Shown here: positions 6,034-44,012 of the stretch, one piece after another
How the letters are laid out: every line of letters starts with the position of its first letter
Position numbering within the stretch: the stretch's first letter is position 1
Assembly (NCBI RefSeq): GCF_008327825.1
Contig: NZ_AP019827.1
Coordinates: 248,001 to 312,000, forward strand
Reading direction: 5' to 3'
Length of the DNA: 64,000 nt
From: Leptotrichia shahii
Lineage (GTDB): Bacteria; Fusobacteriota; Fusobacteriia; Fusobacteriales; Leptotrichiaceae
Translations under genes and position numbers: made by a program
The notes under the pieces: model-generated
Told to the model about the DNA's origin: nothing
The model's database searches: none
What the model saw: the letters and a program-made list of their open reading frames with translations, nothing else

Positions 6034-6930
6034 ATGTTAAAGAGTTTTATTGAACAAACTATTAACGGACTGCAAACTGGAAGTATTTATGCCCTGATTG
6101 CTTTGGGATACACAATGGTTTACGGTATCGTTAAACTTATAAATTTTGCACATGGTGATATACTTATGGTGGGAGCTTATATTACGCTTATCGCTGTGTC
6201 AAATGGGATGCCATTGATACTGGCTATTGTTTTATCAATTGTTTTGTGTGCGATTTTGGGAGTTGTGATCGACTTTTTTGCGTATCGTCCAATTAGGAAT
6301 GCACCTAAAATTTCGGCATTGATTACTGCGATTGGAATGAGTTTTTTACTGGAAAGTCTGGCACTTATAATATTTGGTGCAAATCCAAAAGTTATTGATC
6401 CAAAATATATACCAGCATTTTTATCAAATGATAATAAAATGAAGCTAGGATTCTTACAAATAAGCACACTTACAATATTTGTAATTGTGATTACAATAAT
6501 ATGTATGGTAGCTTTAAATTTATTTATTAAAAAGACAAAATTGGGAAAAGCTACAAGAGCGGTTTCACAGGATACAGGAGCGGCACAGCTTATGGGAATT
6601 AATGTAAATAAGACTATTGCCATAACATTTGCAATTGGTTCTGGACTTGGTGCATTAGGTGGAGCATTGTATGCGATTGTTTATCCCCAAATTGAGCCAT
6701 ATATGGGGATGCTGCCTGGATTGAAGGCATTTATTGCGGCTGTATTTGGAGGAATTGGAAGCATTCCTGGAGCTATGGTTGGTGGATATGTTCTGGGACT
6801 GCTTGAAGCGTATGTAAAAGGGTCATCGCTTACAACTTGGGCAAATCCAATTGTATTTGGTGTGCTTATATTAATATTGATTTTTAGACCAAATGGATTA
6901 TTTGGTAAAAATATGAAGGAAAAAGTATAA
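6034..6930 (+). CDS. livH: Branched-chain amino acid ABC transporter permease LivH
   Basis: This is one of the two inner-membrane subunits that form the channel of the HAAT importer. The 298-residue protein has about eight hydrophobic segments. It starts with FIEQTINGLQTGSIYALIALGYTMVYGI, the family hallmark in which the first helix leads into GYTMVYGI.KLINFAHGD. The coupling region near residues 175-200 (LGKATRAVSQDTGAAQLMGINV) is the EAA-like loop contacting the ATPases. ATG 6034 has a GGAG site about 9 nt upstream. livM follows after 24 bp. The length and motifs are complete. Confidence 0.93.
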   Translation: MLKSFIEQTINGLQTGSIYALIALGYTMVYGIVKLINFAHGDILMVGAYITLIAVSNGMPLILAIVLSIVLCAILGVVIDFFAYRPIRNAPKISALITAIGMSFLLESLALIIFGANPKVIDPKYIPAFLSNDNKMKLGFLQISTLTIFVIVITIICMVALNLFIKKTKLGKATRAVSQDTGAAQLMGINVNKTIAITFAIGSGLGALGGALYAIVYPQIEPYMGMLPGLKAFIAAVFGGIGSIPGAMVGGYVLGLLEAYVKGSSLTTWANPIVFGVLILILIFRPNGLFGKNMKEKV

Positions 6931-6954
6931 CTTAGAAGGGAGGAAATTGAAAAA

Positions 6955-8067
6955 ATGGAAAAAAATAACAAAGATGTGAAGACAGAAAATATAGCTAGTT
7001 CAGAAAAGAATCATGATGAACATTCTAAAAAAGATAAAGAAACAAAAAATTCCAGATGGAATGACTTAAATTATTTCAACAAATTAAATGTGAAAAATTA
7101 TGTTGCTACATTTCTTTTGATAATTGTATTTTATTTTGTTCTAAGTTTTACTTTTAATCCAAATGACCCTTTCAGCTATACAAAGGGAATCTATATAAAT
7201 ATCCTAATATACGTATTATTTTCAGTAAGTTTGAATATAACAGTTGGACTTATGGGACAGCTTAATTTGGGACAAGCTGGATTTATTGCAATTGGCGGAT
7301 ATTCAGCGGCATTTATTTCAAAAATATTAGTTCAGTATAATTTACCGCCATTTTTACAATTAATTATAGTATCACTATTTGGTGGATTAGTTGCGGCTGT
7401 ATTTGGATTTTTAGTTGGGGGAAGTACGCTTAGATTAAGAGGAGACTATCTTGCAATTATTACACTTGCCTTTGGAGAAATTATAAAATATATTATTCAA
7501 AATTTAGACTTTTTAGGTGGAGCGACTGGACTTAGCAATATTCCGACACTTTTGAGTTTTTCAAATACGTATTTCATTGTAGTTATCTCAATTATTGTAA
7601 TTGCGATGGCTATGACTTCACGAAAAGGAAAGGAAGTTTTGTCAATTAGGGAAGATGAAATTGCGGCTGAAAATATTGGAATTAAATTAAATCGTGTAAA
7701 ACTTTATGGCTTTGCACTTTCAGCATTTTTTGCTGGAATTGGGGGATCACTATTTGCGCATAATGTAGGAATTTTAACGCCTGATAAATTTGGTTTTTTA
7801 TTCTCAATAGAAATTCTTGTTATGGTGGTGCTTGGAGGACTTGGAAGTATTACAGGAGCGATTGTCGCTGCAGTGATTTTGACATTATTAAATGAAAAAT
7901 TAAGAGACGTTTCACAATTTAGATACTTAGTTTATGCAATTATATTGATTTCGTTAATGATTTTCCGTCCAAAAGGAATTTTCGGTACAAAGGAATTTAC
8001 ATTTGCAGGCACAAAAAAAAGAATTAAGCGAATTAGAGATTATAAAAATAATAAAAATGAAAATTAA
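6955..8067 (+). CDS. livM: Branched-chain amino acid ABC transporter permease LivM
   Basis: The partner permease of LivH is 370 residues long. Residues 1-50 are a hydrophilic, lysine- and glutamate-rich extension not usual for LivM. The membrane core follows, with the family signature YILFSVSLNITVGLMGQLNLGQAGFIAIGGY and, near residues 235-255, the coupling loop VLSIREDEIAAENIGIKL. The extension should lie in the cytoplasm. A GGGAGG site precedes ATG 6955. Being between livH and livG, it belongs to the same transcript. It is as long as E. coli LivM, which also has an N-terminal extension, but the charge pattern here differs. Confidence 0.92.
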   Translation: MEKNNKDVKTENIASSEKNHDEHSKKDKETKNSRWNDLNYFNKLNVKNYVATFLLIIVFYFVLSFTFNPNDPFSYTKGIYINILIYVLFSVSLNITVGLMGQLNLGQAGFIAIGGYSAAFISKILVQYNLPPFLQLIIVSLFGGLVAAVFGFLVGGSTLRLRGDYLAIITLAFGEIIKYIIQNLDFLGGATGLSNIPTLLSFSNTYFIVVISIIVIAMAMTSRKGKEVLSIREDEIAAENIGIKLNRVKLYGFALSAFFAGIGGSLFAHNVGILTPDKFGFLFSIEILVMVVLGGLGSITGAIVAAVILTLLNEKLRDVSQFRYLVYAIILISLMIFRPKGIFGTKEFTFAGTKKRIKRIRDYKNNKNEN

Positions 8068-8916: not shown

Positions 8917-9630
8917 GTGAATATTTTAAATGTAAATGACTTAAATGTCTATTATGGCGGAATTCATGCCATAAAAAACATTTCATTTCAGATAAAAAAA
9001 GGTGAAATTGTCTCTCTAATCGGTGCAAATGGAGCTGGAAAAACATCCACACTTCACGCTATTTCAGGGCTTGTACCAATAAAATCAGGAGAAATTTCCT
9101 TGAGCGGAGAAAATATAACCAATGCTGATGCCTACAAACTTGTCAGCCGTGGAATGGCACACGTGCCAGAAGGACGTAGAATCTTTACAGAGCTGACTGT
9201 ACTGGAAAACTTGGAAATGGGAGCATACACAAGAAATGATGCAGATCAAATAAAAAAAGATATGGAACATATGTTTTCATTGTTTCCAAGACTTGCCGAA
9301 CGTAAAAAACAATTGGCAGGAACAATGAGTGGAGGAGAGCAGCAAATGCTGGCAATGGCAAGAGCCTTAATGTCAAATCCTTCGTTATTATTACTAGATG
9401 AGCCATCAATGGGACTAGCACCATTATTAGTGCAGGAAATTTTCAATATTATTGAAAGAATTAATAAGGAAGAAAACGTAACTGTGCTGTTAGTAGAACA
9501 AAATGCCAATATGGCACTATCAATCGCAGATAGAGGATATGTTCTGGAAACTGGGAAAATCATTCTGGAAGGAACTGGGAAGGAACTGCTTACAAATCCT
9601 GAAATTAAGAAGGCTTATTTGGGAGGATAA
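8917..9630 (+). CDS. livF: Branched-chain amino acid ABC transporter ATPase LivF
   Basis: The second ATPase subunit, 237 residues, pairs with LivG. Motifs are Walker A GANGAGKTS, Q-loop VPEGRRIFTELTVLENL, signature MSGGEQQMLAMARAL, Walker B LLLLDEPSMGLAP and switch VEQNANMAL; the VPEGR and MSGGEQQ forms are LivF-specific. Translation starts at GTG 8917, four nt after AAGGAGG (8907-8912); the overlapping ATG at 8915 is out of frame and meets a stop at once. It is the last gene of the operon and is followed by a terminator. Confidence 0.93.
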   Translation: MNILNVNDLNVYYGGIHAIKNISFQIKKGEIVSLIGANGAGKTSTLHAISGLVPIKSGEISLSGENITNADAYKLVSRGMAHVPEGRRIFTELTVLENLEMGAYTRNDADQIKKDMEHMFSLFPRLAERKKQLAGTMSGGEQQMLAMARALMSNPSLLLLDEPSMGLAPLLVQEIFNIIERINKEENVTVLLVEQNANMALSIADRGYVLETGKIILEGTGKELLTNPEIKKAYLGG

Positions 9631-9706: not shown

Positions 9707-9801
9707 TGAAGAAGTTTTTTAAAAAAGGAAAAATTGAAATAGAAAAATTATAAAATTAATGCAAAAAAACAATAAAAAAATGTATTTTTACTAAATTTTT
9801 C

Positions 9802-9829
9802 TTGAAAAAATCAAAAAATATAGTATAAT
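9802..9829 (+). promoter_or_regulatory. Promoter of the ATPase/TOPRIM pair
   Basis: TTGAAA (9802-9807), 16 nt and TATAAT (9824-9829) lie 39 nt before the ATPase start codon. Confidence 0.65.
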
Positions 9830-9867
9830 ATATTTAATAAAATATGTTTTAGTAAAGGAGATTAATT

Positions 9868-11214
9868 TTGAAATTAAAATCTATAAAATTAGAGAATTTT
9901 AAAAATATAAAAAATTCAAAAATTGAATTTAAAAGTAATAATTTATCAGCAATTTACGGACCTAATGGAAGTGGGAAAACGGCTGTAATAGAGGCAATTG
10001 AAGTTGTAAGAGAATATTTTTTGATTGATAAACCTGATTTTATGGAAAAGGAATTGGATGAAAAGTTAAAAAATTTTATAAAAATAGGAGAAACTACGAC
10101 TTCTATTGAGTTGGAAATAGAAGGTGAAACAAAAAAATATAAGATTATTCTAAATTTTTCAAAAGACAAGTTTAATAATATTTTGCCTATGGAAGAAAAA
10201 ATTTTATATAAAAATGCAGATAAAAAAAGAGAAACTTATAAAAAATTAATTTCTTTCAAAAGTTATGAAACACAGCAAATTAAGTTAAAAAAATCTGAAA
10301 GTATCAATATAATAGAAAAAATATTGAAACAGCAGGAAACAAGTAAATTAAGCATAAATTTAGAAAATGTAAATTTAAATAGTTATTTAGGGATTATTTT
10401 TAGTCAAATTATTGAGAATCAAAAAAGTGAAAATAAAATAGAATTGAATGATGAACTCGAAAATGTATTGATAAATTTTTTAGAAATTGAAAACTATTTA
10501 ACTAAAATTTTTGTTATAACATTAGAAAATCAAGCAATAACAAATTTGAAAATTTTCTTAAATATGAATATCCACTTGGAAAATTCACAAGGAACAATCC
10601 CAATTACACTTAACCAAAATAATAATTTTTATTCTGAAAATATAGCAGAAGCAATTATAAATACTGTAAAACAAATAAACGGAATTTTTAAAGCAATTAT
10701 ACCTGATTCTGAATTAGTATGCGAAATAGAAGGAGAAAGAATAACTGAAAAAGAAAAGGAAAAAGGAATAAACTTATATATAATAAAAAAAGGAGATAAA
10801 ATTTCTATAAAAAATGAATCTGTAGGAATACAAAAGATAGTTTCAATATTATCAGCTTTGATTTACTGTATTCAAGACGAAAATGCGCTTGTAGTAATAG
10901 ATGAATTGGATGCCCATATTTTTGAATATTTGCTCGCAGTAATCTTGGAACAAATCTCAAAAATAGCAAAAGGACAACTAATTTTTACCGCCCATAATCT
11001 TTCTCCAATGGAAAGGTTAAAAGGAGAAAATATAATAGTTACTTCTCTTGATGAAGATAAAATAAATTACAGCTATTTTAAAAGAATTTCTAAAACAACC
11101 AACTTAAGACAAAAATACATAAGATCACAAGCAATATGGAGTGAAGACAATATAAATCCATTAAATATAAGTGAAACAGAAATAGCATTGTATATGAGGA
11201 AGTTGGTGAAATAA
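9868..11214 (+). CDS. AAA/ABC-type ATPase of an OLD/RecF-like defence pair
   Basis: A 448-residue ATP-binding protein of the SMC/RecF-like AAA class. It begins with a typical MKLKSIKLENFKNIKNSKI strand-turn, then Walker A GPNGSGKT (31-38). Near the C-terminus come an ESVGIQKIVS signature-like segment (about 315-324), Walker B VVIDELD (342-348) and the switch histidine H376 in FTAHNLSP. The middle is a helical, lysine-rich insertion with no coiled-coil hinge of SMC length. Its stop codon abuts the ATG of a TOPRIM-like gene, so the two are co-translated. Such ATPase plus TOPRIM pairs are known in anti-phage and abortive-infection systems (OLD, Gabija-like, AbiL); which type this is cannot be told. 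The start is TTG 9868 after AAAGGAG. Confidence 0.75.
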   Translation: MKLKSIKLENFKNIKNSKIEFKSNNLSAIYGPNGSGKTAVIEAIEVVREYFLIDKPDFMEKELDEKLKNFIKIGETTTSIELEIEGETKKYKIILNFSKDKFNNILPMEEKILYKNADKKRETYKKLISFKSYETQQIKLKKSESINIIEKILKQQETSKLSINLENVNLNSYLGIIFSQIIENQKSENKIELNDELENVLINFLEIENYLTKIFVITLENQAITNLKIFLNMNIHLENSQGTIPITLNQNNNFYSENIAEAIINTVKQINGIFKAIIPDSELVCEIEGERITEKEKEKGINLYIIKKGDKISIKNESVGIQKIVSILSALIYCIQDENALVVIDELDAHIFEYLLAVILEQISKIAKGQLIFTAHNLSPMERLKGENIIVTSLDEDKINYSYFKRISKTTNLRQKYIRSQAIWSEDNINPLNISETEIALYMRKLVK

Positions 11215-11878
11215 ATGAAGGGGAGTGTTATATTAATAATAGTTGAGGGAATTAGTGACGAAGAAACTCTTGTTCCATGGATAAACAGAACTATAAATAA
11301 ATTGAGAAAAAGAGTTACACCAATTGTGATACATGGTGATATGTTTACAAGATATAAAGAATATTCGAAAGAATTTGAAATTACATCTTCAAATGTAATA
11401 AAAGAATTACAAAAAGTTGTAAATAGTTTTTTAAAAAAGCCATCAAATGTTATAAAATGGGCAGATATTATAAAAGTTTATTATGTAACTGATACAGATA
11501 ATTGTTTCAAAATAGAAAGAGAAAATTTAATAAATAAAAGGAAATGTCTAAATAAATTGTTTAAATTAAAGAAAATTGGAAAATCTAAAGGTTCAAGAGA
11601 AACCGTTTGAAGTAATTTTTTTTGGAAATAATTTGGAACATGTTTTATATGGTATAGAAAATAGATTATCTGATAAGAAAAAAACAAAATTATCTACAGA
11701 ATTTGCAATAGATGTGTCAAATGGAAAAAAAGATTTTAAAAGTTCATTTTCACAAGGTGAAATAAAAACTTGGAACATTTATGAAGAAAGTTATAAAGAA
11801 ATTCAAAATTATGAAGGCAGAGCAACAAATATTATTGCACTAATAGAAGAAATAGAAAATGGATTTAAACCTTTATAA
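11215..11878 (+). pseudogene. TOPRIM-like nuclease partner, broken by a frameshift
   Basis: The gene starts with ATG 11215, directly after the ATPase stop. The first frame (11215-11610) shows a strand followed by VEGISDE (E11, D15) and VTDTD (D93, D95), which is the acidic E...DxD layout of TOPRIM metal sites. The frame ends at 11610, while the +1 frame (about 11570-11878) continues with PFEVIFFGNNLEHVLYG and a helical end. Together they would give about 220 residues. The shift lies between about 11570 and 11608, near runs of A (11572-11575 and 11580-11583). It may be a real inactivating or switching mutation, or a sequencing error. Both halves have the same A-rich codon use as the ATPase. 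Confidence 0.65.
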
Positions 11879-11879
11879 G

Positions 11880-11909
11880 TTGGACTTTTCCCATAATTTA
11901 CTGTATAAT
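11880..11909 (+). promoter_or_regulatory. Promoter of the aldolase gene
   Basis: TTGGAC (11880-11885), an 18-nt spacer and TATAAT (11904-11909) sit 39 nt before the start codon. Confidence 0.55.
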
Positions 11910-11948
11910 ACGAATATGAAGCACCGGTTTTACAGAAAGGAAAAATTT

Positions 11949-12974
11949 ATGTTATATTTTGCAAATGATTATACGCAAGGGGCTTGTCAAGAGATTTTGG
12001 ATGCGATTGTTAAGACTAATTTTGAGAATTTGTCTGGATACGGGGCTGATAAATATTGTGAAAGTGCAAAAGCAAAAATTAGGAAAGCTTGTGAATTGGA
12101 AAATGCAGATGTTTATTTTTTAGTTGGTGGAACACAGACTAACACAGTTGTGATAAATTCGATGCTGCAGTCTTATGAAGGGGTGATTGCGGCTGAAACG
12201 GGGCATATTAGTGTGCATGAGGCTGGAGCGATTGAATTTACAGGGCATAAGGTTTTGATGTTGCCACATCATAGTGGGAAAATTGATGTTAATGAGTTGA
12301 AGGAATATTTACAGACATTTTATGTGGATAAAAATCACGAACATATGGTTTTTCCTGGAATGGTTTATATTTCACATCCAACAGAATATGGAACTTTGTA
12401 TACCAAAAACGAATTAACAGAAATTTCAGAAATTTGTAAAAAATATAAGATTCCGTTATTTTTGGATGGAGCAAGGCTGGCATACGGGCTTATGGCAAAG
12501 GATACGGATGTTACACTTCCAGATATTGCTCGGCTTTGTGATGTTTTTTATTTTGGAGGGACAAAAGCTGGAGCATTGCTTGGGGAAGCAGTTGTTTTTA
12601 CCAAAAATAATACACCAAAGAATTTTATAACAAGGATAAAGCAGCATGGAGCATTACTTGCTAAGGGAAGGCTGCTTGGAGTACAGTTTGACACATTATT
12701 TTCAAATGATTTGTACAAAAGGATTGGAAAACATACTATAAATTTATCTGAAAAATTAAAAAATATTTTACATGAAAAAAATTACAGATTTTATCTTGAA
12801 TCACCTACAAATCAGCAGTTTATCATAATTGAAAATACAAAAATGGAAAAACTGGCAAAAAACGTAAGTTTTTCATTTTGGGAAAAATACGATGAAAATC
12901 ATACGGTAATAAGATTTGCAACGAGCTGGGCAACTACGGAAAAAGATTTGGATGAATTAATAAAATTATTATAA
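11949..12974 (+). CDS. ltaE: Low-specificity L-threonine aldolase
   Basis: A PLP-dependent enzyme of the beta-eliminating lyase superfamily (fold type I) that cleaves L-threonine or L-allo-threonine to glycine and acetaldehyde. Landmarks are FANDYTQGACQEIL at the start, GGTQTN near residue 65, the EAGAIE segment, FLDGARLAYGL with the PLP-contacting aspartate, and FYFGGTKAG with the Schiff-base lysine at K206. ATG 11949 is preferred over an upstream in-frame start at 11859 because AGAAAGG (11934-11940) is well placed and the upstream start would overlap the preceding gene and the promoter. The product is 341 residues, the family length. Confidence 0.9.
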   Translation: MLYFANDYTQGACQEILDAIVKTNFENLSGYGADKYCESAKAKIRKACELENADVYFLVGGTQTNTVVINSMLQSYEGVIAAETGHISVHEAGAIEFTGHKVLMLPHHSGKIDVNELKEYLQTFYVDKNHEHMVFPGMVYISHPTEYGTLYTKNELTEISEICKKYKIPLFLDGARLAYGLMAKDTDVTLPDIARLCDVFYFGGTKAGALLGEAVVFTKNNTPKNFITRIKQHGALLAKGRLLGVQFDTLFSNDLYKRIGKHTINLSEKLKNILHEKNYRFYLESPTNQQFIIIENTKMEKLAKNVSFSFWEKYDENHTVIRFATSWATTEKDLDELIKLL

Positions 12975-42302: not shown

Positions 42303-44012
42303 ATGGTTGCAACAATACAAGTTAATAAACAAAGTATAAAACGGCTGCTGGAAAGCGGGAAAGAACAGATGTTTTTAATACCTGAATATCAAAGGCCATA
42401 TTCCTGGACTGAAAATGAGACTAAGACATTATTTTACGATCTTTTGGAATTTACAGAAAGTGAGTCGAAAAAAAATAGTGAAGTGGAAGGAACATATTTT
42501 TTAGGAAGTATCGTTTCTTATGAAAATGAAGCTGGAGAGCAGGAAATCATTGATGGGCAGCAAAGAATCACTTCATTGTTCTTGCTTCTTCGTGCAATTT
42601 ATACAAAATTAACTTCTTATAAGGAAAAAACTGTTGAGCAGGAAAACTTTATAAGACAGATTCAGCCTGCACTTTGGAAACAGGAAAAATTGACTGGAGA
42701 AGTTGATTATAAAAGTGTGCTGATTACATCACGAGTTATAGATAATGAGGGAAATAAAATTTTACAGGATATTTTAGAAACAGGAATTGCTGACCATAAG
42801 AGAAAGGACAATTATTCTAAAAATTATATTTTATTCCAAAGGCTATTTGATAAACTTTGTGAATTAAGTCCAACTTTAATGCTGGAATTTATTTATTATA
42901 CATTAAATAAGGTGGTAGTTTTCCCAATAAAGACAGATTCTCAAGATGATGCTCTAAGCGTGTTTTCTACTTTGAATGACAGAGGATTGCCATTATCTGA
43001 AGCGGATATATTTAAGGCAAAAATGTATAATAGAATAAAAAAAGAATATAAGAAAATGTTTATTAAGCAATGGAAAAATCTAAGTGAACGGGCAACCTAT
43101 GCCAGAGAAAATGTAAAACAGCTGTTTTATTACTATATGTTCTATTTAAGGGCAGTAGAAAAGGATATTGCAACAACTACACTTGGACTTAGACGTTTTT
43201 ATTCAAAAAATGGATTTACAAGGCTGTATAAATCAAATTTACTAAAACATCTGGATCAAATTCTGGATTTATGGGTTGTAATGAACAGGCATGAATCTAT
43301 TGACGACAAGCCTTGGACTGAAAATATAAATATTATTAAAATTTTGGATACTTTGTCAGCATATCCAAATGAATCTTGGAAATATCCAGTTGTTGTATAT
43401 TATTTGTCGCATGGAGAAAAGGAAAATTTTGAAGCGTGTTTTCTAAAATTTTTGAGAAAGCTGTTTTTGGAATTAACTGCCAATTACCTTGTAACGCCAA
43501 GTGTTTCAGCAGTAAAAGCAGACATTCTCAAATTAAATGTTGATATAGTTGATAATATTTCTCCAAAAGTTGCGTTTAAAAATATTCCAATCACGATATT
43601 ACAGGAAAGAGTTAAAACGCCCAATAAAAATCTTGTGCGTATGATTTTAAAAATGGTTGTCTATAATAATCAAGATGAACTGTTGCCTGAAAAATGGGAA
43701 GTTGAATATATATTGCCACAAAAATGGAGTGACCGGTTTACAGAAAGTGTCGAAAATAAAGAAGTTAAGAAGCATATAAATTATATAGGAAACAAGATTC
43801 CATTTGAAAGAAGATTGTCAATTAAAGCTACGGAAAACTTCTTTGAAAAGAAAAAGATAAGTTATAAAAAATCTAAAATTAAATATGTTAGAGAATTGAT
43901 ACCAGATGATAAGAATGACTGGACTTTTGAAGATATTGAAACAAGAAATAAAAAAGTAGCTGAAGAACTTGTTAAATTGTTTATTACTTGGAATGGAGAA
44001 TATGAATTTTAA
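42303..44012 (+). CDS. DUF262/DUF1524 protein (GmrSD-like), nuclease motif altered
   Basis: A 569-residue single-chain protein of the GmrSD/DUF262 type, whose members include type IV restriction enzymes against modified phage DNA. The N-terminal ParB-like domain has LIPEYQRPYSW and DGQQR (84-88), the nucleotide-handling motif; ALSVFSTLNDRGLPLSEADIFKA follows. The C-terminal DUF1524 domain should hold an EHILPQ-type HNH motif, but here it reads EVEYILPQ: the catalytic histidine is tyrosine (Y469), while IGNK and the K...YKKS end are kept. Either the nuclease is inactive or another residue serves. AGGAGG precedes ATG 42303. A membrane-protein gene follows 11 bp later. Confidence 0.85.
   Translation: MVATIQVNKQSIKRLLESGKEQMFLIPEYQRPYSWTENETKTLFYDLLEFTESESKKNSEVEGTYFLGSIVSYENEAGEQEIIDGQQRITSLFLLLRAIYTKLTSYKEKTVEQENFIRQIQPALWKQEKLTGEVDYKSVLITSRVIDNEGNKILQDILETGIADHKRKDNYSKNYILFQRLFDKLCELSPTLMLEFIYYTLNKVVVFPIKTDSQDDALSVFSTLNDRGLPLSEADIFKAKMYNRIKKEYKKMFIKQWKNLSERATYARENVKQLFYYYMFYLRAVEKDIATTTLGLRRFYSKNGFTRLYKSNLLKHLDQILDLWVVMNRHESIDDKPWTENINIIKILDTLSAYPNESWKYPVVVYYLSHGEKENFEACFLKFLRKLFLELTANYLVTPSVSAVKADILKLNVDIVDNISPKVAFKNIPITILQERVKTPNKNLVRMILKMVVYNNQDELLPEKWEVEYILPQKWSDRFTESVENKEVKKHINYIGNKIPFERRLSIKATENFFEKKKISYKKSKIKYVRELIPDDKNDWTFEDIETRNKKVAEELVKLFITWNGEYEF

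What the first reader, a model, noticed from the sequence alone, without database searches (positions are those of the whole stretch)
9868..11878. ATPase plus TOPRIM-like pair, possibly an undescribed or divergent defence system, with a frameshifted nuclease
Seen: an SMC/RecF-type ATPase (Walker A 31-38, Walker B 342-348, switch H376) whose stop codon abuts a gene with E11, D15 and D93-x-D95 in TOPRIM spacing. The second gene changes frame between about 11570 and 11608, beside short A runs. Known: ATPase plus TOPRIM proteins (OLD, Gabija, AbiL) act against phages. Inferred: this is a two-gene relative in which the nuclease is small (about 220 residues) and separate. The break may be a way to switch off a costly toxin.
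Basis: partly seen in the sequence, partly recalled or inferred. Interest (0 to 1): 0.72.

Follow-up and report, generated by a model that had tools for sequence, protein, structure and literature searches.

The report
ATPase–TOPRIM defence pair, effector gene broken
This oral Leptotrichia carries a two-gene module, an SMC/Rad50-type ATPase sensor with a small TOPRIM-like nuclease, that is very probably an anti-phage system of the AbiL/PARIS type but with a nuclease family that standard databases do not recognise; in this strain the nuclease gene is disabled by a two-base deletion, while a close relative has an intact copy.

Summary
Window 9868-11214 encodes a 448-aa ABC (Rad50/SMC/PtuA-like) ATPase. 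Its stop codon abuts 11215, the start of a small gene with E11, D15, D93-x-D95. That gene is frameshifted: against an intact homologue in Leptotrichia sp. oral taxon 879 F0557 (98% identical ATPase; nuclease 221 aa), two bases are missing at 11600/11601, not in a homopolymer. The pair, same order and abutting or overlapping, recurs in Fusobacteriota chromosomes, Cetobacterium, Paenibacillus, Lysinibacillus and Ruminococcus plasmids, a Clostridioides phage and IMG/VR contigs. The acidic motif is invariant or nearly so at 21-47% identity. A confident model (pLDDT 91) has the TOPRIM strand order with the acids at the ends of strands 1 and 3; its best structural match is an OLD TOPRIM domain (Z 6.3, weak). 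Some homologues sit beside Thoeris, SEFIR, type I restriction, AbiL or Cas13c genes. The effector matches neither RloB (AbiLii), DUF4435 (AriB) nor any library family at threshold. So it works like AbiL/PARIS, with a distinct effector family: a new variant of a known kind, disabled in this strain. Nuclease activity, defence and target are inferred. Phase-variable switching is not supported; plain loss of the effector is.

The parts
9802..9829 (+). probable sigma-70 promoter (TTGAAA-16-TATAAT)
   Evidence: consensus scan, 11 of 12 matches, best in the region; consensus only
9854..9860 (+). Shine-Dalgarno-like AAAGGAG before the TTG start
   Evidence: sequence
9868..11214 (+). ABC ATPase (Rad50/SMC/PtuA/AriA/AbiLi-like sensor), intact, 448 aa
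   Evidence: Pfam AAA_15 2e-14, AAA_21 3.5e-11; PADLOC AbiLi 1e-23, mad3 3e-18, AriA 2e-17; AF2 model pLDDT 80, Rad50 Z 22.9, PtuA Z 20; omega 0.095 against F0557
11215..11610 (+). 5' part of the TOPRIM-like effector gene (131 codons, ends at a premature TGA), with the E11/D15, D42, D93-x-D95 and K108 motifs
   Evidence: homologous to residues 1-125 of the intact F0557 protein
11600..11601 (.). position of the two-base deletion that shifts the frame
   Evidence: DNA alignment with the intact homologue L008
11576..11878 (+). 3' part of the effector gene in the second frame (homologous from about 11604), with the NLE motif and the C-terminal N206 motif
   Evidence: (84% identical to F0557 residues 119-220)

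Best explanation
The locus is a compact, solitary two-gene anti-phage (abortive-infection type) module. The first gene makes an ABC/SMC-head ATPase that dimerises or oligomerises on ATP, holds the effector and senses infection. The second gene, translated directly after it, makes a small two-metal TOPRIM-family nuclease (about 220 aa) with catalytic E11, D93 and D95. On infection the ATPase would release or activate the nuclease, which would cut a nucleic acid, most plausibly tRNA by analogy with AriB, and stop growth before phage progeny are made. In this Leptotrichia the effector gene has lost two bases, so only a truncated 131-aa product lacking the C-terminal 40% is made and the module is almost certainly not functional, although the ATPase is intact. 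Shown here: gene structure, pair conservation, motif conservation, ATPase fold, disruption. Inferred: TOPRIM nuclease chemistry, ATPase control, defence, RNA target.
For: Every full-length effector homologue recovered has the ATPase (or its remains) directly upstream, overlapping or with a gap of at most 2 nt. Motif residues E11, G12, D42, D93, D95, K108, L141, K157 and N206 are invariant in 14-15 sequences at 21-47% identity. AF2 model pLDDT 90.8: b1(4-10)-a1-b2(34-40)-a2-b3(85-93)-a3-b4(130-137), with E11 after b1 and D93/D95 at the end of b3, as in TOPRIM. Best structural aligner hit is the B. pseudomallei OLD TOPRIM domain (Z 6.3, 142 aligned, rmsd 4.4, 18% identity), with X. campestris OLD at Z 5.7. 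ATPase: Rad50 Z 22.9, PtuA Z 20.1, retron ATPases; profile-profile homology to the AbiL-type ATPase at 1e-23. Neighbours: L050 pair followed after 92 bp by ThsB, ThsA and bSEFIR; L030 pair between PDC-S18 and HsdR pieces; L043 pair before an AbiL ATPase; L010 ATPase beside HepT/nucleotidyltransferase genes and Cas13c. Carried on plasmids, a phage and prophage-like contigs. Patchy: effector gene in 10 of 98 Fusobacteriota genomes. Precedents: AriA/AriB (PMC12409363, PMC9122126); AAA:TOPRIM_OLD pairs (PMC10440598); F. nucleatum AbiLii toxic in E. coli (PMC3985639).
Against: No family library recognises the effector at threshold. The structural match to TOPRIM domains is below the level the tool calls trustworthy (Z 6.3 with unrelated folds at 5-6; no Foldseek hit at E <= 0.001). 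Profile comparison with OLD TOPRIM aligns only the E11 motif (E 0.01); the same test also failed to link RloB with OLD, so it is insensitive. Most chromosomal copies, this one included, lie among housekeeping genes, not in classic defence islands. No activity data.
Confidence: 0.72

Rival explanations
1. It is a toxin-antitoxin module in which the ATPase merely neutralises a toxic TOPRIM protein and defence is secondary or absent (as validated for AAA:TOPRIM_OLD pairs from Clostridium algidicarnis and Streptococcus agalactiae).
For: Neutralisation of TOPRIM_OLD toxins by AAA ATPases was measured in E. coli for two other pairs (PMC10440598, read). In the loci here, effector loss with intact ATPase (window, L010, L012, L042, L048) is commoner than the reverse (L035).
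Against: Antitoxin-first TA does not exclude defence; those authors themselves propose abortive infection. In PARIS deletion of either gene was non-toxic (PMC9122126), and F. nucleatum AbiLi did not neutralise AbiLii (PMC3985639). L035 keeps an intact effector with a broken ATPase (indels only, possibly an assembly error).
Confidence: 0.3
2. The pair is a DNA-repair or chromosome-maintenance ATPase-nuclease, like SbcCD/RecF partners, with a housekeeping role.
For: The ATPase is closest in fold to Rad50/SMC heads; the gene sits among housekeeping genes in several genomes.
Against: Patchy presence (effector in 10 of 98 Fusobacteriota genomes; ATPase in 3 of 13 Leptotrichia genomes, one of these decayed), plasmid and phage carriage, frequent decay, and defence-gene neighbours.
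Confidence: 0.07
3. The frame change in the second gene is not a lesion but programmed frameshifting, phase variation or a sequencing error, so the effector is made in some cells.
For: Both halves keep homology (84-90% identity to F0557); the 3' half has omega 0.18; a +1 slip at the terminal GTT-TGA would join the frames one residue short (sequence).
Against: Two bases are absent outside any homopolymer or repeat; all intact homologues are read in one frame; no usual slippery site was recognised by eye; the 5' half shows 7 non-synonymous against 1 synonymous change, suggesting relaxed constraint (small numbers).
Confidence: 0.12

Closest known systems
AbiL (AbiLi ATPase + AbiLii RloB-type TOPRIM-related effector)
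   Same: Two genes, ATPase first, small separate effector; the ATPase is homologous (PADLOC AbiLi 1e-23, profile-profile 1e-23).
   Different: Effector does not match PF13707 RloB, which does ring in 14 other Fusobacteriota genomes; the ATPases paired with RloB there look like a separate subgroup (start M-L-I-x-F-x-x-K-N-F-K-S-F).
PARIS (AriA + AriB, class 4 OLD)
   Same: Split ABC ATPase and TOPRIM effector; the ATPase passes the AAA_15/AAA_21 cut-offs used for AriA.
   Different: Effector lacks DUF4435 (PF14491). This genome has a separate genuine AriA/AriB pair on its second contig.
AAA(D29):TOPRIM_OLD pairs of the NetFlax network (PMC10440598)
   Same: Same architecture, AAA neutralising a TOPRIM_OLD toxin; may include this very family.
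   Different: Sequences of nodes M70/D60 were not available here, so membership is open.
OLD nucleases / Gabija GajA
   Same: ABC ATPase plus TOPRIM chemistry; the effector's best structural match is an OLD TOPRIM domain.
   Different: Domains not fused; no UvrD-type helicase partner.
MADS Mad3/Mad4 and Septu PtuA/PtuB
   Same: Related ATPases (mad3 3e-18, PtuA 9e-13; PtuA fold Z 20).
   Different: No methyltransferase module beside the pair; no HNH domain found in the effector.

Membership tests
Split ATPase+TOPRIM (OLD-like) defence class | ABC ATPase with Walker A, signature, Walker B and switch His | tested here: met
Split ATPase+TOPRIM (OLD-like) defence class | TOPRIM topology with Glu after strand 1 and D-x-D after strand 3 | tested here: met
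   AF2 model pLDDT 90.8 and invariant residues
Split ATPase+TOPRIM (OLD-like) defence class | significant structural or profile match to a TOPRIM family | tested here: inconclusive
   OLD TOPRIM is the top structural row but Z 6.3 only; OLD-like_TOPRIM E 0.015-0.1, below cut-off; hhalign local only
Split ATPase+TOPRIM (OLD-like) defence class | anti-phage activity | not testable with these tools
   needs experiment
AbiL | AbiLi-type ATPase | tested here: met
   models of this class overlap widely
AbiL | RloB (PF13707) effector | tested here: not met
   no match at any pair locus; 14 other genomes ring
PARIS | AAA_15/AAA_21 ATPase | tested here: met
   54.3 and 44.1 bits against cut-offs 32.1 and 27
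PARIS | DUF4435 (PF14491) effector | tested here: not met
   the only hit in this genome is on contig 2
Gabija / OLD | ATPase and TOPRIM fused, with GajB helicase for Gabija | tested here: not met
   separate ORFs; no helicase neighbour recognised by inspection of the window ORFs
Septu | HNH nuclease partner | tested here: not met
   no HNH match in the effector family
MADS | Mad3/Mad4 with methyltransferase genes in one operon | tested here: not met
   ATPase mad3-like; no methyltransferase neighbour recognised by inspection of the window ORFs
NetFlax AAA:TOPRIM_OLD node M70 or D60 | homology to the node's TOPRIM protein | not tested
   node sequences not held

The most novel reading that the evidence does not exclude
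A separate, unnamed ATPase-TOPRIM anti-phage system, spread by plasmids, phages and chromosomal cassettes through Fusobacteriota and Bacillota, whose small effector is a TOPRIM nuclease family of its own (invariant E11-G12, D42, D93-x-D95, K108, N-L-E/D, K157, N206), probably with its own RNA target.
Probability: 0.45. Interest if true: 0.55.

Novelty: new variant of a known kind. Interest (0 to 1): 0.42.

Why it matters
TOPRIM effectors coupled to SMC-type ATPases are a growing class (PARIS, AbiL, OLD, MADS), but effector families outside RloB and DUF4435 are not caught by the detection libraries used here. This family suggests that such modules are undercounted, in Fusobacteriota especially, and gives a small effector with a clear set of invariant residues and intact copies ready to test. 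The broken copy here also shows that the mere presence of the ATPase, which tools may call AbiL or AriA, does not mean a working system.

Tried and rejected
PADLOC PDC-M12B hit (2e-5) for the truncated 131-aa product: set aside, because it vanished for the intact homologue. Foldseek against PDB and BFVD with the effector: no hit at E <= 0.001, mixed Rossmann-like folds; an RloB-like phage protein appears at rank 14 in BFVD. Profile search of solved structures with the effector alignment: nothing. hhalign against RloB and DUF4435 alignments: no match, but the control RloB against OLD also failed, so uninformative. A further viral scan with the Clostridioides phage ATPase found nothing. Phase variation by slippage: rejected, no tract at the lesion. 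Loss asymmetry (5 effector losses against 1 ATPase loss) is suggestive only: many loci were found through the ATPase, which biases the count. A read-level check of the lesion and metagenome scans were not possible.

Full report
What is there. The window lies in a 2.16-Mb Leptotrichia genome (G000, contig 1, 248001-312000); its nearest named relative in the collections is Leptotrichia sp. oral taxon 879 F0557. Between a branched-chain amino-acid transporter ATPase gene (8917-9630) and a threonine-aldolase-like gene (11859-12974) lies a cassette: a good promoter-like site at 9802-9829, a Shine-Dalgarno-like AAAGGAG, an ATPase ORF 9868-11214 with a TTG start, and a second gene starting at 11215 directly after the stop.

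The ATPase. It matches AAA_15, AAA_21, SMC_N and AAA_23, and the ATPases of AbiL, MADS, PARIS, Septu and Gabija in PADLOC. An AlphaFold2 model (pLDDT 80) aligns best with Rad50 heads (Z 22.9), other SMC heads and PtuA (Z 20.1). Walker A 31-38, Walker B 342-348, H376 and an S-x-G signature at 318-320 are invariant or nearly so in 16-17 homologues. Against F0557 dN/dS is 0.095, so it has been under purifying selection.

The second gene. The F0557 copy (L008 7348-8013) is intact at 221 aa, next to an ATPase 98% identical to the window's. The window's copy lacks two bases between 11600 and 11601 relative to it, hits TGA at 11608-11610, and continues in the other frame to 11878. The lesion is not in a homopolymer. 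Both halves retain homology. The 5' half shows 7 non-synonymous and 1 synonymous changes, the 3' half 8 and 9; numbers are too small for a firm claim but agree with relaxed constraint.

Family. Searches in 98 Fusobacteriota genomes found the second gene in 10 of them. tblastn against plasmids and phages added Cetobacterium, Paenibacillus, Lysinibacillus and Ruminococcus plasmids and a Clostridioides phage, and IMG/VR added further loci. Wherever the second gene is full length the ATPase, or its remains, is directly upstream. Alignment of 15 members gives invariant E11, G12, S14, D42, D93, D95, K108, L141, K157 and N206. The model of the intact protein (pLDDT 90.8) has the b-a-b-a-b-a-b order of TOPRIM domains, with E11 after strand 1 and D93/D95 at the end of strand 3. 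The structural aligner puts the OLD TOPRIM domain first (Z 6.3, 18% identity) with another OLD TOPRIM domain at Z 5.7, but unrelated folds follow closely, so the fold assignment rests mainly on topology plus motifs.

What it is not. The effector family does not match RloB (AbiLii), although that family rings in 14 of the 98 genomes, nor DUF4435 (AriB), which rings in this genome only on contig 2, nor any Pfam, NCBIfam, PADLOC or PHROG family at threshold. Its weak best Pfam hint is OLD-like_TOPRIM (0.015-0.1), in the right register at E11. It is therefore not AbiL or PARIS by their defining effector, although the ATPase alone could be labelled either.

Context. Several copies are beside defence genes: a contig in the viral collection with ThsB-ThsA and a SEFIR gene 92 bp downstream (L050), a copy between a PADLOC candidate and pieces of a type I restriction subunit (L030), a copy followed by an AbiL-type ATPase (L043), and an ATPase beside HepT/nucleotidyltransferase genes and Cas13c on a Cetobacterium plasmid. 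Other copies, including the window's, are solitary among housekeeping genes. In Leptotrichia the site between the transporter gene and the HAD-phosphatase gene varies in content: G003 and G004 have another small gene there, G011 a dynamin-like pair, G002 and G012 clusters of small secreted or membrane proteins; G008 has a decayed ATPase elsewhere.

Losses. Among loci examined, five have an intact ATPase with a missing or broken effector (window, L010, L012, L042, L048), one has an intact effector with an ATPase broken by indels only (L035), and three are decayed in both or have a decayed ATPase without effector (L036, L045, L096). This fits an effector that is costly, but the sampling favours loci with an intact ATPase.

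Mechanism. By the AriA/AriB precedent (the ATPase oligomer sequesters a TOPRIM tRNase and releases it on sensing a phage protein; PMC12409363) and the AAA:TOPRIM_OLD toxicity-neutralisation results (PMC10440598), the most likely mode is an ATPase sensor controlling a two-metal nuclease that arrests growth. F. nucleatum AbiLii was toxic in E. coli but was not neutralised by AbiLi (PMC3985639), so simple toxin-antitoxin logic need not apply. None of these steps was shown for this family.

Verdict. It is a new variant of a known kind, with a disabled effector in this strain.

Noticed in passing
G000 contig 2, about 6731-7411 (L115 1372-3667, minus strand): A genuine PARIS pair (AriA-like ATPase 9.5e-30, AriB DUF4435 6e-25) on the second contig of the same genome, overlapping by about 80 nt; a near-identical copy is on contig 2 of G011.
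   Followed up: partly
window 42303-44012: DUF262/GmrSD-like protein (PADLOC HEC-06 2.8e-42), another candidate defence gene, among ordinary genes.
   Followed up: no
window 9720-11880 and the same site in L090-L095: The stretch between the livF-like and HAD-phosphatase genes is a variable-content site across Leptotrichia; F0557 has a 7.4-kb insert flanked by a duplicated 3' end of the transporter gene and has lost most of the threonine-aldolase gene.
   Followed up: partly
L092 1990-4308: Dynamin-like GTPase pair (weak LeoBC match, 4e-6) at the same variable site in another Leptotrichia.
   Followed up: no
G000 contig 1 35649-35840 and most Fusobacteriota genomes: An ATPase/OLD-TOPRIM protein of about 430-490 aa (PF20469) is found in most Fusobacteriota genomes searched (family in 57 of 98) and strongly conserved, more like a core gene than a defence system.
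   Followed up: no
L043 4389-8246: An IMG/VR contig carries this pair immediately followed by an AbiL-type ATPase gene without an evident RloB partner.
   Followed up: no
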